From Blastococcus saxobsidens (lineage in GTDB: Bacteria > Actinomycetota > Actinomycetes > Mycobacteriales > Geodermatophilaceae): 64,000 nucleotides of DNA. A model generated the notes under the pieces. The model searched no databases. It saw nothing but the letters and a program-made list of their open reading frames with translations, and was not told the origin of the DNA. Made by a program: the position numbers and the translations under genes. Position 1 is the first letter of the stretch; every line of letters starts with the position of its first letter. The stretch is from NCBI RefSeq assembly GCF_002938435.1, contig NZ_POQT01000004.1, positions 62,001 through 126,000 of the forward strand, written 5' to 3'. This document shows, piece after piece, positions 5,509 through 18,853 of the stretch.

Positions 5509-5916
5509 ATGACCGTGGCCGCGCAGATGCTGGACACCTATCCCAAGGACCTCGGCGGGGTGGACAGGCAGAAGCTGATCGAGTGCATCGAGGCGTGCGT
5601 CGAGTGTGCGCAGGCCTGCACCGCGTGCGCCGACGCCTGCCTCAGCGAGGACATGGTGGCCGAGCTGACGAAGTGCATCCGCACCAACACCGACTGCGCG
5701 GACATCTGCGACACGACCGGGCGCGTGTTGTCCCGGCACACCGGCTACGACGCCAACCTGACCCGGGCGGTGCTGGAGGCCTGCGCCGCGGCGTGCAAGG
5801 CGTGCGGCGACGAGTGCGCCAGCCACGCCGAGATGCACGAGCACTGCCGCATCTGCGCCGAGGCCTGCCGGCGGTGCGAGCAGGCGTGCCGCGACCTCAT
5901 CAGCTCGCTGGGCTGA
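5509..5916 (+). CDS. Cys-rich four-helix-bundle copper-storage-like protein (DUF326/Csp)
   Basis: 135 residues. The ATG at 5509 has a strong GAGGAGG site upstream. About 18 Cys occur, largely in CxxxC or CxxC spacing along predicted helices: CIEACVECAQACTACADAC, CIRTNTDCADIC, CAAACKACGDEC, CRICAEACRRCEQAC. This is the pattern of Csp proteins, in which Cys residues line a four-helix bundle and bind many Cu(I) ions. No signal peptide is visible, so a cytosolic form (Csp3-like) is likely. Its divergent ArsR-type neighbour and the shared palindrome suggest metal-dependent induction. Confidence 0.85.
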   Translation: MTVAAQMLDTYPKDLGGVDRQKLIECIEACVECAQACTACADACLSEDMVAELTKCIRTNTDCADICDTTGRVLSRHTGYDANLTRAVLEACAAACKACGDECASHAEMHEHCRICAEACRRCEQACRDLISSLG

Positions 5917-6035: not shown

Positions 6036-6662
6036 ATGGCGACCACGAGCAGCAACGAGGAGCACCGGCACGGGCACGGTGGCGAAGAGGCCGGACACCA
6101 CGACGACTCCGGTCACGGCGGAATGCAGAAGAAGATGTACGCCCGCTTCGCGGCGATGATCGCCACGTCCATGGTGGTCATGTACTGGACGATGTTCGCC
6201 GGCACCTGGGAGTGGAGCCACGTCCAGTTCAGCCAGAGCCGCGTGTTCATGGCGCTGACCATGGGCGGCACCATGGGGCTGGTCATGTTGGCCTGGATGC
6301 TCAACATGTACAAGAACATGAAGGGCAACATCGCGATCGTGGCGGTGAGTCTCCTGCTGCTGGGCGGCGGCATCGCGCTGGACCGCACCCAGGCCACCGT
6401 GCAGGACTCCGCCTGGATGAACGCGATGATCCCGCACCACTCGTTGGCCATCACCCGCTCCGAGCGGGCCACCATCGACGACGCCCGCGTCTGCCAGCTC
6501 GCCGTCGAGATCATCAAGGCCCAGGAGCGCGAGATCGCCGAGATGGAGTGGCTGATCCAGGACATCGAGCAGAACGGGAAGGCGACCACGCCCGAGGAGG
6601 CGCAGGACCGTCCCGTCCCCGAGTTCGAAGGGTCCGCGCTGCGCGACTGCCCGACAGGCTGA
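6036..6662 (+). CDS. Membrane-anchored DUF305 protein with His-rich N-terminus
   Basis: 208 residues. The N-terminus (residues 9-29) has many His (EEHRHGHGGEEAGHHDDSGH), followed by three membrane segments near residues 36-57, 70-92 and 97-114 that are rich in Met. The C-terminal DUF305 part has AWMNAMIPHHSLAITRSE and then REIAEMEWLI. DUF305 proteins are ferritin-like helical domains often found with copper resistance genes; Met and His could bind metal. It lies 119 bases after the Cys-rich protein and may share its transcript. A hairpin overlaps the stop codon. Confidence 0.8.
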   Translation: MATTSSNEEHRHGHGGEEAGHHDDSGHGGMQKKMYARFAAMIATSMVVMYWTMFAGTWEWSHVQFSQSRVFMALTMGGTMGLVMLAWMLNMYKNMKGNIAIVAVSLLLLGGGIALDRTQATVQDSAWMNAMIPHHSLAITRSERATIDDARVCQLAVEIIKAQEREIAEMEWLIQDIEQNGKATTPEEAQDRPVPEFEGSALRDCPTG

Positions 6663-6679
6663 CCGGCTTTTCCGGTCAG
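6659..6679. terminator. Bidirectional hairpin between convergent genes
   Basis: CTGACCGG and CCGGTCAG form a perfect 8-bp stem around the loop CTTTT. The stem contains the stop codon of the DUF305 gene on the left and reaches the stop codon of the minus-strand gene on the right, so it can end transcription from both sides. Confidence 0.6.
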
Positions 6680-7626
6680 GGCGCCAACCGCGGCGTGAAG
6701 GTCACCCCGCCGTCGGCGGACTCCAGCAGACCGGCTTCGGTCACGACGACGATCCGGCTCGCGTCGGCGTCGGCGGCCACGGCATTCGGGGCCACTCCCA
6801 CGGCGGCGCGCTCCTGCCAGCTGCTACCGGCGTCGCTGCTGGTCCACAGCGTGCCGCCCGGGTCGACCCCGGCGGCGGTGGAGCCGTCGCCGGCCCAGGT
6901 GACCACGTGCAGCAGCGGCGCTCCGGCGACCGGTGACCAGCTGGTGCCGGCGTCGGCAGAACGCAGCAGACCGGCGGCGGTGGTCGCCAGGACCGTGGTG
7001 CCGTCGGGCGCAGCGGAGAGGGTGTGCGGCTCGGCCGGGATGGTCGACTGCTCCCAGGTGCGGCCGTCAGCGCTGCGCCGCAGGGCGCCGTCGAAGCCGA
7101 GGATCCCGGCGTCGCCGGCGGTCAAGGCGTGGAAGTCCGACTCGCCCTGGCGGGACAGCGGCGTCCAGCTGCGACCGCCGTCGGTGGTCTCGATCAGCCC
7201 GACCGGCTGGGGGAGGTCGACGCGCAGGCCCGGATGTCCTGAGGCCAGGTAGTGGTCGGGGCCGACGACGGTGAAGCCCATGAGGTCGATGACCGGCCCG
7301 GTCGGTGCGAGTTCGCCGTCTGCGCCGACCTCGAGAAGCCCCTCGTGGGTGTCCAGGAGCAGCGCGCCGTCGCCGGGGTCGATGGCCACGGCGTGCACGT
7401 GCGCGGATGGCAGGACGCCGGCGTCGGCCGAGGGGGCCGCGGCGGTGGGGCCGGATCCTGAGGAGGAGCAGCCGGCTGCGAGGGCGACCACGACGGCGCT
7501 TGCGGCAGTCGCGCGCAGCACCTGGCGGCGCTGGCGGTGGACAGGAAGGAGAGCGCGGAGAGCGCGCAAGGAAGGACTCCGGAGGTGCGGCAAGGGAGGG
7601 GGCGCCGGGGACGGCGGGCGGCACAT
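6676..7626 (-). CDS. Lipoprotein beta-propeller with Asp-box (BNR/sialidase-like) repeats
   Basis: 316 residues from the ATG at 7626, which gives an unusually long N-terminus before the lipoprotein signal (AVVVALAAGC); a GTG closer to the signal is possible. Five Asp-box-like repeats are seen: TTDGGRSWTPL, SADGRTWEQS, SADAGTSWSPV, SSDAGSSWQER and SADGGVTFTPR. This points to a six- or seven-bladed propeller displayed outside the cell. No sialidase catalytic residues can be assigned, and the family of exported propellers next to DUF305 genes has no firmly known activity. It begins 24 bases after the DUF305 lipoprotein gene, so the two are probably co-transcribed. Confidence 0.75.
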   Translation of the reverse strand: MCRPPSPAPPPLPHLRSPSLRALRALLPVHRQRRQVLRATAASAVVVALAAGCSSSGSGPTAAAPSADAGVLPSAHVHAVAIDPGDGALLLDTHEGLLEVGADGELAPTGPVIDLMGFTVVGPDHYLASGHPGLRVDLPQPVGLIETTDGGRSWTPLSRQGESDFHALTAGDAGILGFDGALRRSADGRTWEQSTIPAEPHTLSAAPDGTTVLATTAAGLLRSADAGTSWSPVAGAPLLHVVTWAGDGSTAAGVDPGGTLWTSSDAGSSWQERAAVGVAPNAVAADADASRIVVVTEAGLLESADGGVTFTPRLAP

Positions 7627-7649: not shown

Positions 7650-8273
7650 TCAGCCGCCCAACTCGGCGAGCAGCTGCTCCATCTCGGCGATCTCGGCGCT
7701 CTGGCTGTCGCGGATGGCCCCAGCCATCGCCAGCGCGTCGGTGTTCCGGCCCGAGCTGAGCACCGCCTCTGCCATCTCCACCGCGCCGGTGTGGTGGACG
7801 ATCATCTGGGAGAGGAACATGCGGTCGAAGTCGGCACCGGTCGCGTTCATCAGCGCCTGCATGTCCTGCTCGGACATCATCCCGTCCGAACCGTGGTCCA
7901 TGCCGCCGTGGTCCATCCCGGTCCCGCCGTCGGCGCCCCACTGCTCCAGCCAGCCGGACAGGGTCTCGATCTCCGGGCCCTGCGCGGCCTCGATCCGTGC
8001 GGCGAGGTCGAGCACGCGGGGATCGGCGGCGCGGCCCTCGGCCAGTTGCGCCATCTCGATGGCCGACTGGTGGTGGGGAACCATGCCGGCGGCGAAGGTG
8101 ACGTCGGCGTCGCTGAAGTCGGCCTCGGCGCTGCTCTCGGCGCTGGCCGAGGTGTCGCTGCTGCCCATCGAGTCGTGCCCGGCGGTGGTGTCGTCGCCGC
8201 AGGCGCTGAGGACGAGTGTGCCGGCGACCAGGGCGGTGGCCAGCTGGGTCAAGCGGGTGGTGGTGCGCGTCAT
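7650..8273 (-). CDS. DUF305 lipoprotein with MDHGG metal-binding insert
   Basis: 207 residues with a lipoprotein signal ending in LVLSAC. Two ferritin-like halves each carry the hallmark motif: FAAGMVPHHQSAIEMAQ and FLSQMIVHHTGAVEMAE. Between them lies GMDHGGMDHGSDGMM, a Met/His/Asp-rich insert strikingly like the MDHEG repeats of the protein at 10068. It should sit on the outer face of the membrane. DUF305 genes are common beside copper resistance determinants; metal binding is inferred from the motifs. It is probably the first gene of a minus-strand unit with the propeller lipoprotein. Confidence 0.85.
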   Translation of the reverse strand: MTRTTTRLTQLATALVAGTLVLSACGDDTTAGHDSMGSSDTSASAESSAEADFSDADVTFAAGMVPHHQSAIEMAQLAEGRAADPRVLDLAARIEAAQGPEIETLSGWLEQWGADGGTGMDHGGMDHGSDGMMSEQDMQALMNATGADFDRMFLSQMIVHHTGAVEMAEAVLSSGRNTDALAMAGAIRDSQSAEIAEMEQLLAELGG

Positions 8274-8367: not shown

Positions 8368-8859
8368 CTAGATCCGCAGCAGGCAGAGCTCGGACAGGTC
8401 GGGAGGTCGCGCGAGGGTCGGCGCCGTGGATCGTGCCCGCACTCGGGTGAGGGGACGTCGGGCCGTGAGCACGGGGTGGGGGAGCAGGAGGGCCAGCAGC
8501 CCGGCCAGGGCGGCGGCCAGCACCGCCAGGCAGACGGACCACAGATGACCGAGGGTTCCGTGCGAGTCGCTCAGCGGGCCGTCTGCGGCGGCGACCGCCG
8601 CAGACAAGCCGGTGGCCGCGTGCGCGGCGGGCGCCGTGGCGGTGAGCACGGTGCCGATCGCCGCGATCCCGGTGGCGGAGACGACGGTGGCTGCTGTCTC
8701 GGCGGCGCCGTGCACGGGCGTCCCGGGCGGGGCGAGAACGGTGGAGTGCGCGACGGGGGAGGAGCGCCCGCCGTCGACGGCGGCCGCGGTGCACTGGGCG
8801 CCATGCATGACGAAGATGCCGACGAGCACCAGCAGTGCCGTCCACAGTCGTGCCGCCAT
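8368..8859 (-). CDS. DUF6153-type small membrane protein
   Basis: 163 residues from the ATG at 8859, which has GGGAGGAGG eight bases upstream. An N-terminal membrane segment (RLWTALLVLVGIFVMHGAQC), a low-complexity Ala/Thr/Gly middle, a second segment around residues 112-130 (SVCLAVLAAALAGLLALLLP) and the terminal DLSELCLLRI are the hallmarks of the actinobacterial DUF6153 family. Function is unknown, but such genes recur beside DUF305 and copper genes. It is divergent from the CopZ-like gene and shares its operator region. Confidence 0.7.
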   Translation of the reverse strand: MAARLWTALLVLVGIFVMHGAQCTAAAVDGGRSSPVAHSTVLAPPGTPVHGAAETAATVVSATGIAAIGTVLTATAPAAHAATGLSAAVAAADGPLSDSHGTLGHLWSVCLAVLAAALAGLLALLLPHPVLTARRPLTRVRARSTAPTLARPPDLSELCLLRI

Positions 8860-9050: not shown

Positions 9051-9317
9051 ATGCGCACCGCCACCTACACCGTCGTCGGTATGACCTGCGGCCACTGCGT
9101 CAACTCCGTCACCGAGGAGGTCGGTCAGGTGCCAGGCGTCGCGAGCGTGGACGTGGAGCTGGGCACCGGTGGACTGACCGTCACCAGCAAGGACGAGGTC
9201 ACGGACGCCGCGGTGCGAGCCGCTGTGGAAGAAGCGGGCTACCAGCTCGCGGCACCTGTCGAGGAGGTGGCGCAGATCGGTGGACAGGGGCCTGGCTGCG
9301 GCTGTGGCTGCAACTGA
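9051..9317 (+). CDS. copZ: CopZ-like heavy-metal-associated chaperone
   Basis: 88 residues, ATG with GGGAGG upstream. The single HMA domain has the metal site MTCGHCVNSV in the first loop and the family beta-alpha-beta-beta-alpha-beta pattern. It ends in an extra CGCGCN tail after a Gly-rich linker, which adds three Cys beyond the usual CxxC. The family delivers Cu(I) to P-type ATPases or repressors in the cytosol. A CsoR-like operator lies directly upstream. No copper ATPase gene is seen next to it, which is unusual. Confidence 0.85.
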   Translation: MRTATYTVVGMTCGHCVNSVTEEVGQVPGVASVDVELGTGGLTVTSKDEVTDAAVRAAVEEAGYQLAAPVEEVAQIGGQGPGCGCGCN

Positions 9318-9735: not shown

Positions 9736-10077
9736 ATGGTTGCTCTGCTGTTGTTGGCGGCTTTCGTCGTGGTCGGCATGGCAGGGCTCTACGTCGTCTC
9801 GTCGGCGGTGCGGAGCGTCCGGGAGCCGGCCGTCGTGCTGCCGTACGAGTCGGGCCTGCTCCCGCGGCAGCATGCCGTCTCCCGCTACCACGCGCGGTGG
9901 TACGCGGTCACGGTTCTCTTCCTCGCGTTCGACATGGAGATGATCTTCATGTACCCGTGGGCGGTGGTGGTCGCGGACATGGGAGCGCAGGCCGTCATCG
10001 AGATGTTCGGTTTCCTCGCCGTGCTGCTCGTCGGGGTCACCTACGTCTGGCGTGAGGGTGCGCTGCGATGGACGTGA
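9736..10077 (+). CDS. nuoA: NuoA-like subunit of a complex I-like membrane arm
   Basis: 113 residues, ATG after GAGGAGGG. Three membrane segments lie near residues 2-22, 57-78 and 85-103. The family loop reads PYESGLLP (Ser where many NuoA have Cys), and the second segment holds the conserved FLAFDMEMIFMYPWAV with its Asp-x-Glu pair. NuoA belongs next to NuoH and NuoJ at the junction of the peripheral and membrane arms. It is the first gene of an operon of overlapping genes running to 18.1 kb that has no separate nuoB, C, D, E, F, G or I. Confidence 0.85.
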   Translation: MVALLLLAAFVVVGMAGLYVVSSAVRSVREPAVVLPYESGLLPRQHAVSRYHARWYAVTVLFLAFDMEMIFMYPWAVVVADMGAQAVIEMFGFLAVLLVGVTYVWREGALRWT

Positions 10078-11246
10078 TCGCCCGTCTGCGGGCCTGGGCG
10101 CTGGCCCGACCGCGGGTGCTGCTCGTGGACCCCCCGGCAAAGGTGATGCTCCGGTGGTCCGTCGAGGCCGAACTGGACCGGCGTGGCTGGCGGTCCGCCG
10201 CGTCGCCCGCGGATGCCGATCTCCTGGTCGTCCTGGGGGAACCCGGCCCGGAGCTCGCAGCCGCCGTCGACGTCCTGTGGAGCCAGATCCCTGAGCCACG
10301 GCATCGGCTCGATCTCCACCATGAGAGGGCCCTCGCCGTCGACCTGGACGCGGGTCTGGATGCGCTGGTCCGGCGGTCTGCAGGGGTGGTGAGCGGAGCG
10401 GACCGGCCGTCGCCTGCCTCGTTGCTCGGCACGGGTGCGGACGCCGACGACGAGGACGCCGACGGAGAGGGCATGGACCACGAGGGCATGGACCACGAGG
10501 GCATGGACCACGAGGGCATGGACCACGAGGGCATGGACCACGAGGGCATGGACCACGAGGGCATGGACCACGAGGGCATGGACCACGAGGGCATGCACAT
10601 GCACCACAGCGGTGAGGTGGCCGGTCTGCCGATGGCCTCCACCGCCTCCGATCGGGACGGCCTCGAACTCGATGTCCTCAAGGTGGCGCTCGGACCGGTG
10701 CTGCCGGGCTGGCCGACCGGCCTGGTGCTGCGGGCCGACCTGCAGGGTGACGTCCTCACCTCCGCGGAGCTCGCCTGGCTCGACGCCGACCTCCTCCCCG
10801 CCGCGCGGCCGCACCCCGACCCGCAGCAGGCCGCGCTCGACCGGCTCGCTCGCTTTCTCGACGTGGCCGGCTGGTCGACCGCCGCCCGGGATGCACGCCG
10901 CGCCCGGGACGGCCTGGCCGCCGACGGTTCCGACCAACGGGAGGCGCAGCGGCAGGCCGAGGCCGTGGCACGGCGGGTCCACCGATCGCGGACGCTGTCG
11001 TGGACGGCCGGCGGCATCGGGCAAGCGCCATCGGAGCGCAGTTCCGGCGCAGGTGTCCTGGACCGGGTCCGGCGCTGGTGCGACGCCGCGTCGGGGCGAC
11101 CGGTCGAGGACCCCCCTGCCGCCTCGCTGGACGACATCGCGGCCCTGGTGGAGGGCGTGGAGATCGGCAGCGCACGGCTGATCGTGGCCAGCCTGGACCT
11201 CAGCCCCGTTCCCGTCGTGCCGGCCTCGGAGCACGCACATGCCTGA
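10068..11246 (+). CDS. NuoB/NuoD-like fusion with MDHEG metal-binding repeat
   Basis: 392 residues, overlapping nuoA and nuoH by about 10 bases each. Residues about 15-110 follow the NuoB fold pattern (DADLLVVLGEPGPELAAAVD, then WSQIPEPRHRLDL, where real NuoB has a cluster-binding Cys after MPEPR), but all Fe-S cysteines are missing. Residues 136-175 are eight perfect MDHEG repeats followed by MHMHH, flanked by an acidic stretch. The later part (ALGPVLPGWPTGLVLRADLQ) resembles the N-terminus of NuoD or hydrogenase large subunits but lacks any metal-cluster or quinone-site signature I can identify. It is in the right operon position to cap the membrane arm. The repeats are typical of Cu, Ni or Zn binding. 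The family assignment is from memory of motifs and is tentative. Confidence 0.6.
   Translation: MDVIARLRAWALARPRVLLVDPPAKVMLRWSVEAELDRRGWRSAASPADADLLVVLGEPGPELAAAVDVLWSQIPEPRHRLDLHHERALAVDLDAGLDALVRRSAGVVSGADRPSPASLLGTGADADDEDADGEGMDHEGMDHEGMDHEGMDHEGMDHEGMDHEGMDHEGMDHEGMHMHHSGEVAGLPMASTASDRDGLELDVLKVALGPVLPGWPTGLVLRADLQGDVLTSAELAWLDADLLPAARPHPDPQQAALDRLARFLDVAGWSTAARDARRARDGLAADGSDQREAQRQAEAVARRVHRSRTLSWTAGGIGQAPSERSSGAGVLDRVRRWCDAASGRPVEDPPAASLDDIAALVEGVEIGSARLIVASLDLSPVPVVPASEHAHA
10473..10592 (+). repeat. Eight perfect 15-bp coding repeats (MDHEG)
   Basis: The unit ATGGACCACGAGGGC is repeated eight times without a mismatch, giving residues 136-175 of the fusion protein, and is followed by a diverged unit ATGCACATGCACCAC. 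Identity at DNA level, including third codon positions, indicates recent expansion or ongoing slippage. Confidence 0.97.
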
Positions 11247-12177
11247 GCAGACCCTGGCCGAGGCGTGGGGGTCGGCCCCTGCGGTCCTCGCGGTCGTGGC
11301 AGTCGGTCTGGTCCTCGGCCTCGTGGTGGCGGGTGTCGACCGCGCCGTCGTCTCCGGGGGGTCCGGCGCCGCGGTGGAACCGATCCGCTCGAGCGCACGT
11401 CTGCTGCTCGAACAGCGGCGGACCACGCTCGCCCCCGACCGGCTGCTCTGGCGGCTGGGCGGGACGGCGGTACCCGTCCTGGCGTTGCTGTCCCTGGCCG
11501 TCGTCCCGATCGGCGGCCGTACCTTGTGGTCGACCAGCGCCGACCTCGTCTGGTTCAACGCCATGGAGGCGCTGCTGTGGGCCGCCGTCTGGCTGGTCGG
11601 ATGGGGACCGAACGCCGTCCACGCCGTCACCGGCGGCTACCGCTTCCTCGCCCAGGGCCTGGCCTACGAGCTGCCGCTCATGTTCGCGCTGATCACCGCT
11701 GGTCTGGCGGCCGGCTCGCTGCGGACGACCGACGTCGTGGCCGCGCAGCAGGACCTGTGGTTCGTGGTCACGATGCCCGTCGCCTTCGTCGTCTTCGTCG
11801 CCGGCGCCGCGGCGTTCGCCTTCTGGGGCCCCTTCGCTGCGCCGACCGCCGCCGACATCGCCGGCGGGGTCTCCTCCGAGCTGTCAGGGGTGGACCGGCT
11901 GCTGGTCGAGGCGGGACGCGCCATCTTCCTCGGTGCCAGTGCGGCGATGGCGGCGGCGCTGTTCCTCGGCGGTGGCTCGGGTCCCTGGCTGCCCGGTCCG
12001 CTGTGGCACCTGCTGAAGACCCTCGCCGTCGTCGCGGCTCTGGTCTGGATCGGCCGGCGGCTGCCCGTCCTGCGCCCCGACCGGACGGTCGAGGTCGGCT
12101 GGATGGTGCTGGTGCCACTGACGCTGCTGCAGGCGCTGGTGGTCGCCGTGCTCGTGCTGACCGGGTTCTACGCATGA
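11239..12177 (+). CDS. nuoH: NuoH-like membrane subunit
   Basis: 312 residues with about eight membrane segments. The order matches NuoH: EPIRSSARLLLEQ after the first segment, the cytoplasmic loop PFAAPTAADIAGGVSSELSG, and the C-terminal WIGRRLPVLRPD..VGWMVLVPLTLL. In ordinary NuoH that loop reads roughly PFDLPEAESE and lines the quinone channel; here the acidic residues are largely gone, and the RPGPNRVG loop is also not recognisable. The subunit probably still anchors the arm but may not handle quinone in the usual way. It starts inside the last codons of the upstream fusion gene. Confidence 0.8.
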   Translation: MPEQTLAEAWGSAPAVLAVVAVGLVLGLVVAGVDRAVVSGGSGAAVEPIRSSARLLLEQRRTTLAPDRLLWRLGGTAVPVLALLSLAVVPIGGRTLWSTSADLVWFNAMEALLWAAVWLVGWGPNAVHAVTGGYRFLAQGLAYELPLMFALITAGLAAGSLRTTDVVAAQQDLWFVVTMPVAFVVFVAGAAAFAFWGPFAAPTAADIAGGVSSELSGVDRLLVEAGRAIFLGASAAMAAALFLGGGSGPWLPGPLWHLLKTLAVVAALVWIGRRLPVLRPDRTVEVGWMVLVPLTLLQALVVAVLVLTGFYA

Positions 12178-12187
12178 GGAGGACGAG

Positions 12188-12769
12188 GTGCTGAGCGACC
12201 TGTCCGGTTGGGCGATCGCCGCGGTCACGGTGCTCGGTGTGCTCTCGGTGGCATCGGGGATCGCGGTGTTCGTCGTGGACTCGATGGCCCGGGCGACGTT
12301 CGCGCTCCTCGGTTCGTTCCTGGCCGTCGCAGGAGTGCTGCTCGCGCTCGACCTGGTGTACCTGGCCGTGGTGACGGCGCTGATGATGACGATCGAGATG
12401 GCGATCATGGTCGTCTTCATGCTCATGTTCATGATGAACCCGGCCGGGCTCATGCCGATGACCATGGTGCACAACGCCAGGGGCTCGGCCGTTTTGGGTG
12501 CCGGCGCCTTCGTCGTCCTCGTCCTCGGCATCTGGCTGATCGACTGGCCGACCCGGGACGTCTCACGGCCGCCGGACAGCACCCGCCAGCTCGGCGAGGC
12601 GATCATGGGCAGCCACATGCTGGTCATGCTCCTGATCGGCATCGCGCTGTTCGCGACCATCCTGGCCGGCACGGTCCTGGCGACCGCCCGAGGTCGTTAC
12701 GACCGCTTCGGCTCCGGGTTGGACGCGCAGCAGCCGGCCGACCCGGTACCCGGGGGGCTGCCCCGATGA
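12188..12769 (+). CDS. nuoJ: NuoJ-like subunit, Met-rich
   Basis: 193 residues from a GTG with GAGGAGGAC upstream. Five membrane segments are seen; the third (YLAVVTALMMTIEMAIMVVF) is the conserved NuoJ helix, and it runs on into MLMFMMNPAGLMPMTMVHNA, a run unusually rich in Met. A loop of about 30 residues separates segments four and five. In complex I this subunit helps couple the quinone cavity to the antiporter modules. Its stop overlaps the nuoK start. Confidence 0.85.
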   Translation: MLSDLSGWAIAAVTVLGVLSVASGIAVFVVDSMARATFALLGSFLAVAGVLLALDLVYLAVVTALMMTIEMAIMVVFMLMFMMNPAGLMPMTMVHNARGSAVLGAGAFVVLVLGIWLIDWPTRDVSRPPDSTRQLGEAIMGSHMLVMLLIGIALFATILAGTVLATARGRYDRFGSGLDAQQPADPVPGGLPR

Positions 12770-13083
12770 CGTCCGAACTGGTGCTGCAGCTGCTGCTGAC
12801 CGTCGCCGCCGCCCTGGTGGGCGTCGGCCTGTACGGTGCGTTGTCCCAGCAGTCGATCGTCATGGTGATGATGGGCCTCGAGCTCGTCCTGGGCGGCGTG
12901 CTGCTGGCCGGGGGAGCGGCCTGGTTCTTCCTCGCCCCGGAGCTGCCCGACGCCCAGATGCTCGTGGTGGTCGCCCTGGTCGTCATGGCCGTCGAGATGG
13001 CCATGGGGTTCGCGGTCACGATCGCCATCTACCGTGCCCGGCAGGTCGACATGGTCGACATGGCCACGGACCTGAGCGGATGA
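12766..13083 (+). CDS. nuoK: NuoK-like subunit
   Basis: 105 residues with the ATG inside the nuoJ stop (ATGA). Three membrane segments are present. The two channel glutamates of the family are kept: one in VMMGLELVLGG and one in VVMAVEMAMGFAV. The Asn that usually follows the first (LELMLNA) is replaced by Gly. The protein belongs to the E-channel of complex I and is related to MrpC. Conservation of both Glu argues that proton or ion translocation is still selected for. Confidence 0.88.
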   Translation: MTSELVLQLLLTVAAALVGVGLYGALSQQSIVMVMMGLELVLGGVLLAGGAAWFFLAPELPDAQMLVVVALVVMAVEMAMGFAVTIAIYRARQVDMVDMATDLSG

Positions 13084-15017
13084 GCGCGAGCCTGGCCGGC
13101 CTGGTGCTGTCACCGGCCCTGACCGGGGCGGTGCTGCTGCTCGCCGGGCGGCGGGCCGACCGCGCCGCCGGTCCGGTCGCCGTGGTGGTCACCGGCGTCA
13201 CCGTGGCGTTGGCGGCGCTCGTGGCCGTGACCCGGCCACGGCTGTCGGCTCCGTTCCTCGGCATCGTCGAGGGCGGGGACCTGCGACTGGTCGTCGACGG
13301 GCTGTCCGCCGTGCTCGTCGTCCTGGTCACCGGGATCGCCCTGCTCGTCACAGCGTTCGCGGTCGCAGACCTGCCGACGGACGCGGCGCGGGCCCGGTTC
13401 TTCGGCTACCTGCTCCTGTTCGTCGCCGCCATGCTGGCCACCGTCACTGCGGCCACGCTGCCCGCGCTGCTGCTGGCGTGGGAGGTCATGGGCGCGACGT
13501 CCTACGCCCTCATCGGGTTCCGCTGGGAAGAGCCGGGCAAGCTGGCCGCCGGCACGACAGCGTTCGTGACCACCCGGGCCGGGGATCTCGGTCTGTACGT
13601 CGCCGCCGGAGCCGCGCTGGCGGCGACGGGCAGCCTGGGGCTCGCCGACCTGAACACCTCCGGGGGCGGGTGGGCGGACCTCGCCGCGGCCGGCGTGCTG
13701 CTGGCGGCGCTGGGCAAGTCGGCGCAGCTGCCCTTCTCGGCCTGGCTCTCCGCCGCCATGCAGGGACCGAGCCCGGTGAGCGCGCTGCTGCACTCGGCCA
13801 CGATGGTCGCCGCCGGCGGGTACCTGCTGATCCGGATGCAGCCGCTGCTCGCCGCGACCGGCTGGGCCGCGACGGCGGCGGCCTGGATCGGTGCGCTCAC
13901 CGCACTCGTGCTGGGGGCGGTGGCCGTCGCGCAGAGCGACCTCAAGCAGCTGCTCGCCGCGAGCACGGCGGCGCAGGTCGGGTTCGTCGTCCTGGCCGCC
14001 GGGGTGGGTGCCACCGCCGGCGGCACCGCTCAGCTGGTGGCGCACGCCGCGGTCAAGGCCGGCCTGTTCGTCGCCGCGGGAGCCTGGCTCACCGCCCTCG
14101 GTACCAAGCAGCTGGCAGACCTGCGTGGCGCCGCCCGCCGTTATCCGGGGATGGGTGCGGCGGTCGCGGTCGCCGGGCTGGCCCTGGCGGGGATACCGCC
14201 GCTGTCCCTGTGGGCCACCAAGGACGAGGTGCTCGCCGGCGTCGACGGGACGGCGCTGCACGTGGTCGGCCTCGCCGCCGCCGCGGTCTCGGCGGTGTAC
14301 GCCGGCCGGATCCTGGTCGTCGTCCTGGCGCGACCGGCGGGGGAGGAGGCGGTCGACCGGGAGGAGCCGGGCACGCGGCAGATCCCGACCACCACCACCG
14401 CCGTGGCCGGGGTGCTGGCGGTTTTCGCCGCCGGCCTGGGCGTGCTCGCCGTCTCCGCGGTGGCCGACGCGTGGAAGGTGGCCCTCGATGCCGACGGCGA
14501 GCCCTCGCCCGGGCTCGGTGACCTGCTGCTGTCCGGAGTGCTCGCGCTGGTGGTTCTCGGGCTGACCGTCACGGTGGCGCGCGTCCGGCCGGCCACGGTG
14601 CACTGGATCCAGCGCAGCCCGCTCGCGTCCTGGGCGGGGCTGCGGCACGTGCTGTCCCCACGGCCGGCGCTGGCGCTGGCCCGGGTGATGGCCGCGGTCG
14701 ACGACCGGCTGATCGACCGCGTGGTCACGAGCCTGGCGACCGGCGCCGGCCGGGTCGCCAGGCAGGCTGCGCGGGCGGACGACGGAGCCCTCGACGGAGC
14801 GGTCACCGGTCTGGCGTGGGCAACCCGGCGGGCTGCCGACGGATCGGCCCGGGTCGACGCCGGAGTCGTGGACGGCGGGGTCCGGGCGACCGCGCGGATC
14901 ATCCACCGCGCCGGCCGCGCCGCACGGCGTCCGCAGACCGGGCTGCTGCACCAGTACTACGTCCAGGCCGTCGTCGGTCTGGGATTCCTGCTCGTCCTCC
15001 TGCTCGTCGTGAGGTGA
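13080..15017 (+). CDS. nuoL: NuoL-like antiporter subunit
   Basis: 645 residues, overlapping nuoK by four bases. About 14 antiporter-type membrane segments, then a lateral helix region and a last segment (residues about 628-643). Key residues are kept: Glu in LLLAWEVMGATSYALIGF, Lys in ALGKSAQLPFSAWL, the HSATMVAAG motif, and Lys in LSLWATKDEVL. The region between residues 520 and 620 is an amphipathic, Arg/Asp/Ala-rich stretch of the kind that forms the traverse helix. The subunit sits at the distal end of the arm and pumps protons in normal complex I; Mrp-type cation exchange is the alternative. Confidence 0.9.
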   Translation: MSASLAGLVLSPALTGAVLLLAGRRADRAAGPVAVVVTGVTVALAALVAVTRPRLSAPFLGIVEGGDLRLVVDGLSAVLVVLVTGIALLVTAFAVADLPTDAARARFFGYLLLFVAAMLATVTAATLPALLLAWEVMGATSYALIGFRWEEPGKLAAGTTAFVTTRAGDLGLYVAAGAALAATGSLGLADLNTSGGGWADLAAAGVLLAALGKSAQLPFSAWLSAAMQGPSPVSALLHSATMVAAGGYLLIRMQPLLAATGWAATAAAWIGALTALVLGAVAVAQSDLKQLLAASTAAQVGFVVLAAGVGATAGGTAQLVAHAAVKAGLFVAAGAWLTALGTKQLADLRGAARRYPGMGAAVAVAGLALAGIPPLSLWATKDEVLAGVDGTALHVVGLAAAAVSAVYAGRILVVVLARPAGEEAVDREEPGTRQIPTTTTAVAGVLAVFAAGLGVLAVSAVADAWKVALDADGEPSPGLGDLLLSGVLALVVLGLTVTVARVRPATVHWIQRSPLASWAGLRHVLSPRPALALARVMAAVDDRLIDRVVTSLATGAGRVARQAARADDGALDGAVTGLAWATRRAADGSARVDAGVVDGGVRATARIIHRAGRAARRPQTGLLHQYYVQAVVGLGFLLVLLLVVR

Positions 15018-16627
15018 CCGTGCTGCTGACCGTCGTGATCTTCCTGCCGCTCCTGGCGGCGGCCGTGCTGCTGGCCGCCCCCCGACTCGGGGGGCGGACG
15101 GCGATCGGGGTGTGGGTCGCGGCCGCCGCCGCGGACCTGGCGCTGATCGGCTGGATGTGGTGGCGCTTCGACCCGGGCAGCGGCACCTCCGGCGTCGTCG
15201 ACGGTCTGGCCTACGAGGTCGACCTGCAGTGGATCCCCACCGTCGATGCCGGCTACCACATCGGGGTCGACGGTCTGTCCCTGCCGCTGCTGGCCCTGAC
15301 CGGCGTGCTGTTCCTCGCCTGCGCCGTCTACTCGCTGCGCGAACCCGACCGGCCGCGCACCTACGCCGCGCTGTTCCTCTTCCTCCAGACCGCGTGCCTG
15401 GGCACGTTCGCCTCGCTCGACCTGATCCTGTTCTTCGTCTTCTTCGACCTGACGATCGTCGGTATGTACTTCGTGATCGCCGGGTGGGGGCACGGCAACG
15501 CCCGGCGCAGTGCGCTGAAGTTCTTCCTCTACACGTTCATCGGGTCACTGGCTCTGCTGATCGGCTTCATCGGCCTGTTCCTCGGCAGCGACGAGCGCAC
15601 GTTCGACATGGTGGCCCTGGCCGAGAACCCTCCGTTGGCCGATTCGCCGCTGGCCGGCGGGCTGGTGCTGCTGGCGATCGGACTGGGCCTGGCGGTGAAG
15701 ACGCCGCTGTTCCCGTTCCACACCTGGCTGCCCGACGCGCACACCGACGCACCCGCGGCCGGGTCGGCCGTGCTGGCCGGGATCCTGCTCAAGCTCGGGA
15801 CCTACGGATTCGTGCGGATCGCCATGCCGATCCTCCCCGACGCCTGGCAGCGGTGGGCGATGGTCGCCGTCGTCGTCGGCGTGATCAGCGTCCTGTGGGG
15901 TGCCTTCGTGGCGCTGGCCCAGACCGACGTCAAGCGGATGATCGCCTACACCTCGGTGAACCACATGGGCTACGTCCTGCTCGGTCTGGGCGCCGCCGGC
16001 CTGGTGGCCTCCGCCGACGAGGGCGCCCGCACCGTGGCGACGGTCGGGGCGATGTACCAGATGGTCAGCCACGGCCTGCTCACCGGTGCGCTGTTCCTGC
16101 TCAGCGGCTGGCTGTGGTCGCACGGCCACACCTACGCCTTCGACCGGTGGGGCGGGCTGGCCCGCCCCGCTCCGGTCTTCGCCGCCTGCCTGGCGATCGC
16201 CGCCTTCGGCTCCCTGGGTCTGCCCGGGTTCTCCGGGTTCATCGCGGAGTTCCAGGTCTTCACCGGCGCCCTGCAGGCCACGCCGATCGCGACGGTGATC
16301 GCGGTCGTGGGGATCCTGGTCACCGCCGGGCTGTTCCTGCTGGCGCTGCAGCGGCTGCTCACCGGTGACACCACCGCTCCGAGCGAGGTGCCGAGCGACG
16401 GAGATCTGCCGGCGCGCGCGGACGAGCAGCTGAGCGGCGGTGACGGGGGCGCCGCGACCGCCGTCCGGCCGCGGACCGTCACCCGGATCCGGGACCTGCG
16501 CGGCCACGAGATGGCCGCGATCGTGCCGCTGCTCGCACTGGCCCTCGTCCTCGGGCTGCTGCCGCGGGTCCTCCTCGACGTCCTCGAGCCGGCCGCGGCG
16601 GCGGTGGTGGAGCTGGTGGCCCGGTGA
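15014..16627 (+). CDS. nuoM: NuoM-like antiporter subunit
   Basis: 537 residues from a GTG overlapping the nuoL stop (GTGA). The family core is clear: KTPLFPFHTWLPDAHTDAP with the central Lys, then QTDVKRMIAYTSVNHMGYVL. The fifth segment reads ILFFVFFDLTIVGMYFVI, with Asp where NuoM normally has the essential Glu (FWELMLIPMY). A hydrophilic loop of about 45 residues (residues 458-502) before the last segments is longer than usual. A working ion path is likely but with altered chemistry. Confidence 0.9.
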   Translation: MTVLLTVVIFLPLLAAAVLLAAPRLGGRTAIGVWVAAAAADLALIGWMWWRFDPGSGTSGVVDGLAYEVDLQWIPTVDAGYHIGVDGLSLPLLALTGVLFLACAVYSLREPDRPRTYAALFLFLQTACLGTFASLDLILFFVFFDLTIVGMYFVIAGWGHGNARRSALKFFLYTFIGSLALLIGFIGLFLGSDERTFDMVALAENPPLADSPLAGGLVLLAIGLGLAVKTPLFPFHTWLPDAHTDAPAAGSAVLAGILLKLGTYGFVRIAMPILPDAWQRWAMVAVVVGVISVLWGAFVALAQTDVKRMIAYTSVNHMGYVLLGLGAAGLVASADEGARTVATVGAMYQMVSHGLLTGALFLLSGWLWSHGHTYAFDRWGGLARPAPVFAACLAIAAFGSLGLPGFSGFIAEFQVFTGALQATPIATVIAVVGILVTAGLFLLALQRLLTGDTTAPSEVPSDGDLPARADEQLSGGDGGAATAVRPRTVTRIRDLRGHEMAAIVPLLALALVLGLLPRVLLDVLEPAAAAVVELVAR

Positions 16628-18093
16628 CCGGCATGTCCGGCGGCGGGGAGGCGTGGCCGGCGCTGCTCCCCGAGGCGCTGCTGCTGCTGGGCGCGGTCGG
16701 GGGACTGCTGCTTGGCCTGTGGACGCCGCAGCAGCGTCAGTGGCGCGTGCGGCTGCTGGTCACCGCGGCCTGCCTGGCCAGCGCGGTCGCCGCTGCGATC
16801 GCGCTGCCCGAGCCGGCCGAGCGGGTCTTCGAGGGCACCTGGGTCGTCGACACCACCACCGGTGTGGTCCGCCTGGTGGTCGCGCTGGGCGTGGCCGTCC
16901 TCGTGTGGCTGGCCGCACCGTCGGTGGCCGGGCACCCCCGGGAGACCGAGGCCTACGTGCTCATGCTGCTCGGTGCGCTGGGGACGATCGGCCTGGCCGC
17001 CAGCGGCGACCTGCTCCTGCTCGTCGCCGCCTACCTGCTGGCCAGCGTCCCGCTCTACGCGCTGGCCGGCTTCGCCAAGGACTCCGCCGGCACCGAGGCG
17101 ACGATGAAGTACTACCTCATGGGCGCCTTCGTCGGCGTCCTCCTGCTGGTCGGCGTCGCCGCCCTCGTCCTCGCTTCCGGGACCACCGGCTACCTCGAGC
17201 TGGCCGATCTGCTCCCCGAGGCATCCCCGGCGCTGCTCGCCCTCGGGGTTCTCGGCGTGCTCGCAGGCGTCGCGTTCAAGGCCGGCGCGGTCCCGGTGCA
17301 CTTCTGGGTTCCCGACGTGACGGCCGGGACGACGCCGCCGATGGCCGCCTACATCACCACGATCCCCAAGATCGGCGCGGTCGCGGCCGCGTTCCGCCTG
17401 GTCGCCGAACCCTTCGCGGACCTGCCCCTCGACGTCCCGCTCCTGGTGGCCGTCATCGCGACAGCCAGCATGACGCTGGGCAACCTGGCCGCGTTCGCGC
17501 AGACCGACGTCCTGCGCCTGCTGGCCTACTCCACGGTCAGCCAGGTCGGTTACCTGTTCATGGTGGTCGCCGTCGCCGCCCGCACCGACCTCGCCGTCCC
17601 GGCGCTGGCCGTCTACCTGGCCGGCTACGCGGTCACCAACATCGGCGCCTTCGCCGCCGTCGCCGCCGCCCCGGCCGCGAGGACGATCACCGACTGGGCG
17701 ACCGCGGTGGGCCGGCACCGCTGGATCGTGGTGAGCCTGGTCGTCTGCCTCCTCGGCCTCGTCGGAACTCCACCGACGGCCGTCTTCGTCGGCAAGCTCG
17801 CCGTCTTCACCGCCGCGTGGGACGGCGCGCTGGCGTGGTTGGTCGTCGTGGCGGCGATCAACACGGTCGCCAGCCTCTTCTACTACCTCCGCTGGATCGC
17901 GCCCGGCTTCGCCGGCGTTCCGGCCACGCCAGGAGGTGCGGAGGCGGCCACGGGCAGCGGTGCCCGGACCGCAGCGGGCACGGCGCAACGCACGGAGCCC
18001 GTCCCGGTGGGAGTCCTGCACGGCGCCGCCGTCGTCTCGGTGCTCCTCGGCCTCGGGGCAGGGTCCTGGCTCGCCTTCGCCCTGCCGTCATGA
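16624..18093 (+). CDS. nuoN: NuoN-like antiporter subunit
   Basis: 489 residues, start overlapping nuoM by four bases. About 14 membrane segments with FKAGAVPVHFWVPDVTAGTTPP (central Lys kept) and QTDVLRLLAYSTVSQVGYLF. Where NuoN usually has Glu in ELLSLPLYALA, this protein has YLLASVPLYALAGF, so that Glu appears lost. The C-terminal loop at residues 437-465 is hydrophilic and Ala/Gly/Thr-rich. It is the last Nuo-like gene of the operon; the ZIP gene follows 25 bases later. Confidence 0.9.
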   Translation: MTGMSGGGEAWPALLPEALLLLGAVGGLLLGLWTPQQRQWRVRLLVTAACLASAVAAAIALPEPAERVFEGTWVVDTTTGVVRLVVALGVAVLVWLAAPSVAGHPRETEAYVLMLLGALGTIGLAASGDLLLLVAAYLLASVPLYALAGFAKDSAGTEATMKYYLMGAFVGVLLLVGVAALVLASGTTGYLELADLLPEASPALLALGVLGVLAGVAFKAGAVPVHFWVPDVTAGTTPPMAAYITTIPKIGAVAAAFRLVAEPFADLPLDVPLLVAVIATASMTLGNLAAFAQTDVLRLLAYSTVSQVGYLFMVVAVAARTDLAVPALAVYLAGYAVTNIGAFAAVAAAPAARTITDWATAVGRHRWIVVSLVVCLLGLVGTPPTAVFVGKLAVFTAAWDGALAWLVVVAAINTVASLFYYLRWIAPGFAGVPATPGGAEAATGSGARTAAGTAQRTEPVPVGVLHGAAVVSVLLGLGAGSWLAFALPS

Positions 18094-18118
18094 CCGGATC
18101 CCAGGAGGGGGGTCGAGG

Positions 18119-18853
18119 ATGAGCGGCTACCTCCTCGTCCTCGGCCTCGCGGCTCTCCCGGCCGCCGGCAACCTCGCCGGCGGCATCCTCGCCGAGACCT
18201 TCCGCGCGTCAGAACGCACGCTGAGCCTCGCCCTCCACCTCGCCGCAGGCATCGTCCTCGCGGTCGTGGGACTGGAGCTCATGCCCGAAGCACTGAGGTC
18301 CACCACGCCGTGGGTGCCGCTGCTGGCGTTCGTGGGCGGGGGGGCCGCATTCATCGGTCTCGACCGGGCGATCGGCTACGTCCAGGCCAGGATCGGAGGC
18401 GGCGAGAAGCAGGGGAGTGCCCTGACCATCTTCTCCGGGGTGTCCCTGGACCTCTTCAGCGACGGCGTCATGATCGGCACCGGGGCGGTGATCGACCCGG
18501 CCCTCGGCCTTCTCCTCGCACTCGGGCAGGTTCCCGCCGACATCCCCGAGGGCTTCGCCGCCATCGCGACGATGCGCAGGGCCACGATGCCTCGCGGGCT
18601 CCGGCTCCTGCTCGCCGCATCGTTCGCCGTCCCGATCTTCCTCGGCGCCACCGTCGGCTACTTCGCCCTCCGGGACGCACCCGAGATCATCACCCTGTCG
18701 GTGCTGGCCCTGACCGGTGGTGCGCTCACCGCCGTGGTGGTCGAGGAGATGATCGGGGAGGCGCACGAGGGCGAGACGTCGCGGTTGGGCCCGATCTTCC
18801 TCACGGCCGGGTTCGCCGTCTTCGGCGCCATCTCCGTCTACGTCGGGACGTAG
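18119..18853 (+). CDS. ZIP-family divalent metal transporter
   Basis: 244 residues, ATG after GGAGGGGGGTCGAGG. Eight membrane segments; the fourth and fifth hold the metal path. Motifs are LHLAAGIVLAVVGLELMPEAL, VSLDLFSDGVMIGTG and VPADIPEGFAAIATM, which correspond to the H/N/E-rich helices of ZIP proteins, although here Asp replaces some of the usual His. The loop around residues 88-100 is short. ZIP proteins move Zn, Fe or other divalent ions into the cytosol. It is the last gene of the nuo-like operon, so its link to that complex is probably functional. Confidence 0.8.
   Translation: MSGYLLVLGLAALPAAGNLAGGILAETFRASERTLSLALHLAAGIVLAVVGLELMPEALRSTTPWVPLLAFVGGGAAFIGLDRAIGYVQARIGGGEKQGSALTIFSGVSLDLFSDGVMIGTGAVIDPALGLLLALGQVPADIPEGFAAIATMRRATMPRGLRLLLAASFAVPIFLGATVGYFALRDAPEIITLSVLALTGGALTAVVVEEMIGEAHEGETSRLGPIFLTAGFAVFGAISVYVGT

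What the first reader, a model, noticed from the sequence alone, without database searches (positions are those of the whole stretch)
9736..18853. Reduced complex I-like membrane arm with a cysteine-free NuoB/NuoD-like cap and a metal transporter
Seven overlapping genes encode NuoA, H, J, K, L, M and N homologues, yet nothing encodes the NADH, flavin or Fe-S parts (NuoC, E, F, G, I), and the NuoB- and NuoD-like regions are fused in one protein without Fe-S ligands but with eight MDHEG repeats. The operon ends in a ZIP-type transporter and begins after a copper-handling region. This could be an ion pump or antiporter driven by, or driving, metal binding or transport instead of NADH oxidation. 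I know of no description of such a system.
Basis: partly seen in the sequence, partly recalled or inferred. Interest (0 to 1): 0.9.

Follow-up and report, generated by a model that had tools for sequence, protein, structure and literature searches.

The report
Copper-linked, redox-free complex I relative
Bacteria of at least two phyla carry, often beside copper-defence genes and sometimes on plasmids, a relative of the respiratory enzyme complex I that has lost its electron-carrying parts and gained a strictly conserved trail of methionines, which suggests, but does not yet prove, a proton-driven copper pump.

Summary
Genes 9736-18093 encode NuoA, a fused NuoB/NuoD-like cap, NuoH, J, K, L, M and N; NuoC, E, F, G, I are absent. 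The set recurs across Actinomycetota and on plasmids of Alpha- and Gammaproteobacteria. The cap descends from NuoB and NuoD but lacks Fe-S cysteines and the quinone motif; 45 of 73 caps carry HMBD modules or Met/His-rich inserts, 28 do not. New: NuoJ has 11 methionines plus one His invariant in 78 of 78 family rows (pairs down to 26% identity). At eight of these, canonical NuoJ has no Met in 27 sequences; at three, one each. Five lie on one face of TM3. NuoA and NuoK add more. NuoL is intact. Copper-type genes flank 20 of 30 loci against 0 of 20 random regions. I propose a proton-driven Cu(I)/Ag(I) exporter made from complex I: anatomy and conservation shown, transport inferred. The gene set was noticed in 2012 as a 'partial NDH-1' marine-adaptation operon, without copper. 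The ZIP gene is not conserved with it, and the cap is not cysteine-free (one Cys).

The parts
9736..10077 (+). NuoA-like subunit; M69, M72, M90 invariant in 76 rows, H52 94%
   Evidence: Pfam PF00507 96.1 bits; conservation; 12/12 plasmid members keep the three Met
10068..11246 (+). Fused NuoB/NuoD-like cap protein, 392 aa, one Cys, no Fe-S or quinone-site motif
   Evidence: no Pfam hit; weak NuoB NCBIfam hit; profile hits on NuoB chains; hhalign chain to NuoB and NuoD; fold of a close relative
10467..10595 (+). Met/His/Asp-rich linker of the cap: perfect 15-bp repeats encoding MDHEG
   Evidence: 45 of 73 caps have HMBD modules or a Met/His-rich insert, 28 do not
11239..12177 (+). NuoH-like subunit; GPNR loop not conserved (Arg in 5 of 79), FLAEY Glu replaced by Arg (78 of 79)
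   Evidence: PF00146 139.4 bits; residue table
12188..12769 (+). NuoJ-like subunit with 11 invariant Met, Glu70 and His95
   Evidence: PF00499 47.7 bits
12383..12472 (+). Codons 66-95 of NuoJ: Met ladder of TM3 (66,67,71,74,78,82,83) and the loop motif with M91, M93, H95
12766..13083 (+). NuoK-like subunit; M33, M35, M36, M74 invariant in 79 rows (35 is Ile/Leu in 4 of 12 plasmid members), M78 in 75 of 79; both membrane carboxylates kept
   Evidence: PF00420 47.2 bits
13080..15017 (+). NuoL-like antiporter subunit; all five tested proton-path residues kept in 75 of 75 rows
   Evidence: PF00361 166.4 bits; NCBIfam NuoL best, below cut-off
15014..16627 (+). NuoM-like antiporter subunit; TM5 Glu mostly Asp
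   Evidence: PF00361 218.8 bits; TIGR01972 over cut-off
16624..18093 (+). NuoN-like antiporter subunit; TM5 Glu lost, other tested Lys mostly kept
   Evidence: PF00361 154.6 bits; NCBIfam NuoN best, below cut-off
18119..18853 (+). ZIP-family metal transporter: neighbour, not conserved with the operon
   Evidence: PF02535 43.7 bits; no ZIP hit in the other family loci
9051..9317 (+). CopZ-like copper chaperone (HMA domain) upstream
   Evidence: PF00403 60.7 bits over cut-off; CopZ models best but below their cut-offs
8368..8859 (-). DUF6153 protein
   Evidence: PF19650 over cut-off
7650..8273 (-). DUF305 protein, CopM-family metallochaperone
   Evidence: PF03713 162 bits; NF049983 CopM 107.5 bits over cut-off
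6676..7521 (-). F510_1955 family protein (recurrent neighbour in this family)
   Evidence: NF045728 241.8 bits over cut-off; neighbours
6123..6662 (+). DUF305/CopM-like protein with N-terminal hydrophobic segments
   Evidence: PF03713 over cut-off; CopM below cut-off
5509..5916 (+). Cys-rich four-helix-bundle copper storage protein (Csp1-like, DUF326)
   Evidence: PF03860 over cut-off; TIGR04401 below cut-off
5010..5390 (-). ArsR/SmtB metalloregulator
   Evidence: NF033788 over cut-off; recurs beside the operon in relatives

Best explanation
A multi-subunit pump derived from complex I that exports Cu(I) (and probably Ag(I)) from the cytoplasm, powered by the proton motive force. SHOWN from sequence: the membrane arm (A, H, J, K, L, M, N) is complete; the tested antiporter residues of NuoL and the NuoK carboxylates are kept; Fe-S ligands and the quinone motif are gone; the cap descends from NuoB and NuoD; Met residues in A/J/K are strictly conserved; copper-type genes are enriched nearby. 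INFERRED: the cap receives Cu(I) (from a CopZ-type chaperone or glutathione), through its Met/His or HMBD insert where it has one; the NuoJ loop with M91, M93 and H95 takes it over; Cu(I) moves along the Met face of NuoJ TM3, with NuoK and NuoA methionines, to the outside, where CopM-type proteins and multicopper oxidase store or oxidise it. Proton entry through NuoL/M/N runs the complex I machine backwards, through the K/J carboxylate axis, and drives the cycle. The old quinone cavity at the cap/NuoH junction would be the metal entry site.
For: NuoJ Met 33,66,67,71,74,78,82,83,91,93,144 in 78/78 rows (75 distinct, lowest pair identity 26%) and in 12/12 further plasmid members, seven of them Pseudomonadota; canonical NuoJ of the same phylum has Met there in 0/27 (eight positions) or 1/27 (82, 93, 144). 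11 of 20 invariant family columns are Met against 1 of 19 in canonical NuoJ. Met 67,71,74,78,82 fall within an 80-degree arc of an ideal helix (175 of 100,000 random draws as clustered; subset chosen after the fact; all seven TM3 Met: 15,236). Met content is raised in A, J, K and not in H, L, M, N (canonical A, H, L, M, N from one genome only). NuoL Glu, Lys, His, Lys, Lys 75/75. 14 of 73 caps have HMBD-like modules and 31 more a Met/His-rich stretch (10 or more Met+His in 40 residues; canonical NuoB/D/E/F/G/I at most 7) (HMBD by Pfam). Copper-type neighbours 20/30 loci vs 0/20 control regions (18/30 if DUF305, F510_1955 and Csp queries are left out); Pfam flank counts; plasmid neighbours. CusA is a precedent: a pmf-driven pump with a membrane Met relay, where a single change in the Met network abolishes transport (PMC8092243, passages).
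Against: No biochemical or genetic datum. 28 of 73 caps have no HMBD and no Met/His-rich stretch; 11 of these have a short GGxGM[MT]GG linker, and a group including L156, L159, L161 and L163-L167 has nothing metal-like by this measure. The Met ladder is kept there, but several of these loci also lack copper neighbours (L159, L165, L166). Ten of 30 loci had no copper query hit in the flank tested, and 6 of 18 plasmid regions show none. NuoN has lost its TM5 Glu (69/73 Leu) and NuoM mostly has Asp. NuoH keeps some channel carboxylates (HTEY Glu 76/79, last PFDLPEAESE Glu acidic in 75/79), so its rebuilding is partial. The mutual position of the Met of J, K and A was not modelled; AF2 models of cap and NuoJ are poor overall (mean pLDDT 57). 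The genome also has a Cu-type P-ATPase.
Confidence: 0.47

Rival explanations
1. Copper-gated proton (or Na+) conduit: metal bound by cap and Met cluster switches the antiporter arm on or off, to hold pmf or pH while copper destroys Fe-S enzymes such as real complex I. The metal is a signal, not cargo.
For: Intact NuoL and K residues; canonical complex I genes in the same genome as the likely copper victim; no Fe-S motif in the variant. Fe-S damage by copper is recalled knowledge.
Against: A sensor needs few ligands; 11 invariant Met in NuoJ, from the loops through TM3 to the start of TM5, look like a path.
Confidence: 0.2
2. Copper importer or supply route: the complex delivers Cu(I) inward, or outward specifically to load multicopper oxidases, rather than detoxifying.
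For: Multicopper oxidases are frequent neighbours (Cu-oxidase_3 in 8 of 217 flank proteins; on 9 of 12 plasmids searched, no background rate measured).
Against: Neighbours also include many detoxification genes: P-type ATPase, CsoR/CueR/ArsR-type regulators, CopB/C/D, CusA, Csp storage.
Confidence: 0.11
3. Sodium/proton pump for life in sea water (the published reading of what is very probably the same gene set, 'partial NDH-1').
For: PMC3314556 and PMC6002675 (passages) found such nuo genes in marine Salinispora and Kocuria and called them marine adaptation genes; several plasmid members are marine.
Against: Also in Blastococcus and Geodermatophilus, on a soil plasmid of Pseudonocardia and on mycobacterial plasmids from people; does not explain Met ladder, metal-binding inserts or copper neighbours.
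Confidence: 0.08
4. Still a redox pump: electrons come from Cu(I), a molybdopterin enzyme or another unlinked dehydrogenase to a site in the cap.
For: Cap keeps B/D descent; NuoG-like or formate-dehydrogenase-like genes lie near 2 of 79 loci and 2 of 18 plasmid operons; cupredoxins and c-type cytochromes neighbour some loci.
Against: No CC or GP[QH]HP motif in 73/73 caps; no nuoC/E/F/I in 79 loci and 18 plasmid regions.
Confidence: 0.07
5. Decaying remnant of a nuo operon without function.
For: Loss of five subunits; one plasmid copy has an IS element in the cap region.
Against: Conserved order in 65 of 65 complete loci, strong residue constraint, one side of a branch against canonical rows (SH-aLRT 100).
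Confidence: 0.02

Closest known systems
Respiratory complex I (NDH-1, nuoA-N)
   Same: NuoA, H, J, K, L, M, N and the order A-B/D-H-J-K-L-M-N; NuoL proton residues; B and D descent of the cap
   Different: no C, E, F, I (G-like genes near few loci); B/D fused, reduced, without Fe-S cysteines and quinone motif; NuoH GPNR loop lost, FLAEY Glu to Arg; Met ladder in J/K/A; copper neighbourhood
'Partial NDH-1 operon' of Salinispora and Kocuria (PMC3314556, PMC6002675; passages read)
   Same: seven membrane-arm genes; horizontal transfer with proteobacterial relatives; very probably this family (judged from gene content; those sequences were not fetched)
   Different: cap protein, Met ladder and metal link not mentioned in the passages read ('copper' and 'metal' 0 times in PMC3314556); read as a Na+/H+ pump for sea water
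Mrp Na+/H+ antiporter
   Same: redox-free use of NuoL/M/N/K-type subunits
   Different: Mrp has no A, H, J or B/D cap (recalled); own genome has two further antiporter-type genes on contig C1, read here as Mrp
DAB (DabA/DabB, DAB2)
   Same: a complex I-type membrane subunit joined to a non-redox cytosolic partner and proposed to couple pmf to another task (PMC13144422, abstract)
   Different: carbonic-anhydrase-like partner; not a metal path
CusA (HME-RND Cu(I)/Ag(I) exporter)
   Same: pmf-driven; methionines relay Cu(I) across the membrane; acidic/Lys proton relay (PMC8092243, passages); an HMBD-like stretch of the L242 cap aligns with the CusB model, far below its cut-off
   Different: unrelated fold and architecture
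Ech/Mbh/Ehr and formate hydrogenlyase complexes
   Same: reduced complex I relatives; Ehr (recalled) lacks NiFe ligands
   Different: they keep Fe-S in the NuoB-like subunit and usually ferredoxin-like subunits; no Met ladder known (recalled)

Membership tests
Respiratory complex I | redox Q- and N-module subunits C, E, F, G, I | tested here: not met
   no C, E, F or I hit in 79 loci and 18 plasmid regions at E<=1e-5, positive control found all five; G-like in 2 and 2
Respiratory complex I | NuoB N2 Fe-S ligands (CC...C...C) | tested here: not met
   no CC in 73 caps; window cap has one Cys
Respiratory complex I | NuoD quinone-site motif GP[QH]HP | tested here: not met
   0 of 73 caps
Respiratory complex I | membrane arm A, H, J, K, L, M, N | tested here: met
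   Pfam over cut-off for all seven; order kept in 65 of 65 complete loci
Respiratory complex I | proton-path residues of NuoL/M/N/K | tested here: inconclusive
   NuoL all kept 75/75, NuoK Glu 79/79 and 74/79 (Asp in 5); NuoM TM5 Glu mostly Asp, NuoN TM5 Glu lost
Mrp antiporter | Mrp-type gene set and best models | tested here: not met
   best NCBIfam models are Nuo for all seven subunits, and A, H, J are present
Group 4 hydrogenase / Ehr | Fe-S NuoB-like subunit and ferredoxin-like (NuoI-type) subunit | tested here: not met
   no CC motif, no NuoI hit
Cu(I)/Ag(I) transporter with Met relay (works like) | series of conserved Met through the membrane part | tested here: met
   three-dimensional alignment not tested
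Cu(I)/Ag(I) transporter with Met relay (works like) | cytosolic metal-binding domain | tested here: inconclusive
   HMBD-like in 14 and Met/His-rich in 31 of 73 caps, 28 without; HMBD PF19335 over cut-off in two of three relatives' caps scanned
Cu(I)/Ag(I) transporter with Met relay (works like) | metal transport activity | not testable with these tools
   needs experiment
Copper-resistance gene cluster component | linked to copper-type genes more than chance | tested here: met
   20/30 loci vs 0/20 control regions

The most novel reading that the evidence does not exclude
Complex I has been turned into a metal transporter: a very large, pmf-driven Cu(I)/Ag(I) pump in which the former quinone cavity loads copper and the NuoJ/K/A core carries it through the membrane along a Met ladder. 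It would be a new class of metal exporter and, as far as I know, the first non-redox branch of complex I that keeps the whole A/H/J/K/L/M/N arm, spread partly on plasmids among at least two phyla.
Probability: 0.47. Interest if true: 0.96.

Novelty: new variant of a known kind. Interest (0 to 1): 0.9.

Why it matters
How complex I couples an event in its cap to proton movement far away in the membrane is a long-standing question. A natural relative that keeps the whole membrane arm but replaces quinone chemistry by what looks like metal binding and transport would let that coupling be tested without electrons. For copper biology it would add a pmf-driven exporter class beside P-type ATPases and Cus pumps, now hidden in databases as 'NADH-quinone oxidoreductase' genes, and it would reinterpret a published marine-adaptation operon. 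It also warns that counts of partial or plasmid-borne complex I (PMC12361115, passages) may include such relatives.

Tried and rejected
In-frame fusions between NuoA/cap, K/L, L/M and others seemed frequent; this was a script fault (frame not checked), and one search found none. The subunit sequences extracted had the same fault and were not used. The NuoC query was a wrong-frame sequence; one search found the right frame and one search repeated the search for C, E, F, G, I with a positive control. A ZIP-linked zinc/nickel reading was dropped because no other family locus showed the ZIP gene and because thioether ligands favour Cu(I)/Ag(I) (recalled chemistry). AF2 of the cap (L037 relative, nine rows) was confident mainly for residues 1-105; the NuoD fold was not recovered. 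Foldseek: one match with E<=0.001, query TM about 0.23. AF2 of NuoJ was poor and is not used as evidence. A scan of viral contigs found nothing. hhalign of actinobacterial caps directly against one NuoD was weak (probability 2.7, E 0.017); the NuoD link rests on Rubrobacter-type caps (E 1e-14) and on homology between the two cap types (E 5e-44) (E-values of single pair comparisons). The helical-face test is weak if all seven TM3 Met are taken. The tree warns that long branches meet at the join with canonical rows, and uses 40 of 78 family rows. Control families are listed only for the top 25, so one control protein per copper family cannot be excluded; that control held 142 of 178 called proteins (15 of 20 regions). 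Context proteins came from a home-made gene caller. Of 30 canonical loci, 27 gave a usable NuoJ and 30 a NuoK. Of 79 loci, 73 gave a cap. In one search, 39 of 97 relatives match; 27 are strong (E<=1e-20), the other 12 are weak. In some searches the tallies are 54 of 394 and 104 of 396; 27 (E<=1e-20) and 31 (E<=1e-6) are strong, the rest weak matches, nearly all to a NuoB-like stretch (profile positions about 42-83).

Literature: ten answered searches listed no paper whose title or abstract start links these nuo genes to copper; most listed papers were not opened. Read as passages: PMC12361115, PMC6002675, PMC3314556, PMC8092243; outline and abstract: PMC13144422.

Full report
WHAT IS THERE. 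The window holds eight overlapping or closely spaced genes, 9736-18093, plus strand. Seven have Pfam matches above the curated cut-offs: NuoA (96 bits), NuoH (139), NuoJ (48), NuoK (47) and three Proton_antipo_M proteins (166, 219, 155 bits), best modelled as NuoL, NuoM and NuoN. Between NuoA and NuoH lies a 392-aa protein without a Pfam match; NCBIfam gives only a weak NuoB hit at residues 29-81 (E 1.7e-4, below cut-off). It contains eight MDHEG units, encoded by a perfect 15-bp tandem repeat (8.6 copies), and one cysteine, so 'cysteine-free' is not strictly right. A ZIP gene follows. Upstream lie an ArsR/SmtB regulator, a Csp1-like copper-storage protein, two DUF305/CopM-type proteins, an F510_1955 protein and a CopZ-like chaperone. 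The same genome has canonical complex I genes on two other contigs, C44 and C40, two further antiporter-type genes on contig C1 that I read as Mrp, and a Cu-type P-ATPase.

HOW WIDE. With the cap as query, strong matches (E<=1e-20) occur in 27 of 97 related genomes and 27 of 394 of the class; in the phylum sample 31 of 396 match at E<=1e-6. Of 79 fetched loci, 65 show all seven Nuo genes on one strand in the order A-H-J-K-L-M-N; the other 14 miss one or more, mostly at contig ends. No in-frame fusion between genes was found. No nuoC, E, F or I lies in these loci or in 18 plasmid regions; NuoG-like hits occur in 2 and 2 of them (one, on the Halomonas plasmid, where a formate dehydrogenase is annotated), and the positive control found all five. 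The ZIP gene was seen in none of the others. tblastn with the window NuoJ finds 30 plasmid records, among them Mycobacterium, Rhodococcus, Gordonia, Arthrobacter sp. FB24, Pseudonocardia and Rubrobacter, and also Pseudomonadota: Halomonas, Roseivivax, Acuticoccus, Sulfitobacter, Paracoccus, Thioclava, Nitratireductor. In most of these the genes are annotated as NADH-quinone oxidoreductase subunits and the cap as hypothetical or 'heavy metal-binding domain-containing protein'.

WHAT THE CAP IS. The profile of 15 caps matches PDB NuoB chains first (E 1.4e-4 and worse). hhalign links actinobacterial caps to NuoB (E 2.9e-7) and Rubrobacter-type caps to NuoD (E 1.2e-14 over 309 columns), and the two cap types to each other (E 5e-44); these are single-pair E-values. 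Such caps reach canonical NuoD by blastp at 2e-15 against a three-sequence set and by tblastn at 2e-12, and the L138, L242 and Halomonas caps pass Pfam's Complex1_49kDa cut-off. An AF2 model of a close relative is confident mainly for residues 1-105; the 50 listed Foldseek hits are chains of complex I, NDH-1, membrane hydrogenase, MBS or formate hydrogenlyase entries, NuoB-type as far as chain names could be matched, but only one has E<=0.001. None of 73 caps has CC or GP[QH]HP. At the junction of the two halves 14 of 73 caps carry HMBD-like modules (one to five) and 31 a Met/His-rich stretch (10 or more Met+His in 40 residues; canonical NuoB, D, E, F, G, I reach at most 7); 11 others have a short GGxGM[MT]GG linker, and 17 have neither, though some of these (such as L147) come close. 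Different metal-binding modules at one site argue for metal binding as a selected trait in most, not all, members.

THE MET LADDER. Across 78 NuoJ rows (75 distinct, 24 clusters at 70%, lowest pair identity 26%), 20 columns are invariant and 11 of them are Met: 33, 66, 67, 71, 74, 78, 82, 83, 91, 93, 144; Glu70 and His95 are invariant too. In 27 canonical NuoJ from the same phylum, eight of these positions are never Met and 82, 93 and 144 are Met once each; there 1 of 19 invariant columns is Met. All twelve plasmid members examined, seven of them Pseudomonadota, keep all of them. The ladder is kept also where the cap has no metal-like insert. NuoK adds M33, M35, M36, M74 (79/79; M36 is Met in canonical NuoK too, 30/30, the others 0/30), although four of the twelve plasmid NuoK have Ile or Leu at 35. 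NuoA adds M69, M72, M90 (76/76; 12/12 plasmids). Met content is raised in A, J and K but not in H, L, M or N (canonical NuoA, H, L, M, N are represented by one genome only). Met 67, 71, 74, 78, 82 lie on one face of TM3, a set chosen after seeing the data; all seven TM3 Met together do not. By the positive-inside rule and the known topology of NuoJ (recalled), M91, M93, H95 and M33 would face the cytosol and M144 the outer side, so the methionines would span the membrane (inference).

THE ENGINE. NuoL keeps TM5 Glu, TM7 Lys, TM8 His, TM10 Lys and TM12 Lys in 75/75. NuoM keeps TM7 and TM8 Lys (74/75) and TM12 Glu (73/75) but has Asp for TM5 Glu in 61/75. NuoN has lost TM5 Glu (Leu 69/73), keeps TM8 and TM12 Lys (73/73) and TM7 Lys in 62/73. 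NuoK keeps its two carboxylates (Glu 79/79; Glu 74 and Asp 5 of 79). In NuoH the GPNR Arg is found in 5/79 and the Glu of FLAEY is Arg in 78/79, while the HTEY Glu is kept in 76/79 and the last Glu of PFDLPEAESE is acidic in 75/79. The quinone and E-channel entrance thus looks partly rebuilt while the proton arm stays.

COPPER CONTEXT. In one locus for each of 30 genera, at least one of the copper-type queries (P-ATPase, CopZ, CsoR, multicopper oxidase, DUF305, CopC/D, Csp, F510_1955, CueR) hits within 6 kb, or as far as the fetched flank goes, in 20 of 30 loci against 0 of 20 random 10-kb regions of carrier genomes; without DUF305, F510_1955 and Csp it is 18 of 30. By Pfam, 217 flank proteins include HMA 12, Trns_repr_metal 9, DUF305 9, E1-E2_ATPase 8 and Cu-oxidase_3 8; none of these is among the 25 families listed for 142 control proteins. 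Of 18 plasmid regions viewed, 11 show clear copper or heavy-metal genes, one (Ornithinimicrobium) only ArsR and DUF305, and six none. Nine of 12 plasmids searched carry a multicopper oxidase (no background rate was measured).

HOW IT PROBABLY WORKS. A Cu(I)/Ag(I) exporter run by the proton motive force, with the cap as metal receiver and NuoJ/K/A as the conduit (confidence 0.47; lowered from 0.50 when one search showed that 28 of 73 caps lack an HMBD or Met/His-rich insert). Shown: subunits, residue conservation, loss of redox motifs, genomic association. Inferred: cargo, direction, energy source. CusA is the precedent for a pmf-driven Met relay (PMC8092243, passages). Rivals are a copper-gated proton conduit, a copper supply route, a sea-water Na+/H+ pump and a cryptic redox pump.

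WHAT IS KNOWN. [quoted passage not shown] passages) and nuoA, H, J, K, L, M, N in Kocuria (PMC6002675; passages), and read as a pump for sea water. I judge both to be this family by gene content; those sequences were not fetched. The Salinispora paper does not use the words copper or metal. A census of complex I reports partial and plasmid-borne sets and does not use the word copper (PMC12361115; passages). Ten literature searches listed no paper with a copper link in title or abstract start; the library covers open-licence papers only. J/K sequences without the Met columns place the family on one side of a branch from canonical complex I (40 of 78 family rows and 27 canonical; SH-aLRT 100, with a long-branch warning).

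VERDICT. The operon is a real, conserved relative of complex I without known redox sites, partly plasmid-borne and tied to copper in most but not all loci (about 0.9 that this much is right). Filing it as respiratory complex I would fail three defining features. Cu(I) transport is the best-supported function but is unproven.

Noticed in passing
window 19455-20477 (-): EamA-like (recalled family name) transporter whose C-terminal tail is extremely His-rich, another possible metal gene near the operon.
   Followed up: no
window 10467-10595 and relatives: The repeat is a perfect 15-bp minisatellite; its unit and copy number differ between close relatives, so linker length probably changes by slippage.
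   Followed up: partly
L156, L159, L161, L163-L167: A group of members whose caps have no HMBD, no Met/His-rich stretch and no GGxGM linker, while no NuoJ row of the family breaks the Met ladder; L159, L165 and L166 also lack copper neighbours in the flank tested.
   Followed up: partly
L244 (Pseudarthrobacter defluvii plasmid pA): An IS3-type element is annotated inside the cap region of this plasmid copy: a natural disruption.
   Followed up: no
G475 (L143 and L152): One genome carries two different copies of the operon with different neighbours.
   Followed up: no
for example G487, G501, G537: Many phylum members have two places that match canonical NuoJ, so second complex I copies seem common.
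   Followed up: no
L231 (Halomonas sp. KO116 plasmid): Ergothioneine synthesis genes egtB and egtD directly follow nuoN, and a formate dehydrogenase gene lies further on; ergothioneine can bind copper (recalled).
   Followed up: no
L231, L236, L244: APC-family permeases lie upstream of nuoA on L231 and L236, and potassium channel genes directly upstream on L236 and L244.
   Followed up: no
PMC6002675: Kocuria marina SO9-6, one of the isolates compared there (only SM24M-10 is named as lacking the nuo genes), is titled in its reference list as a copper-mine isolate.
   Followed up: partly
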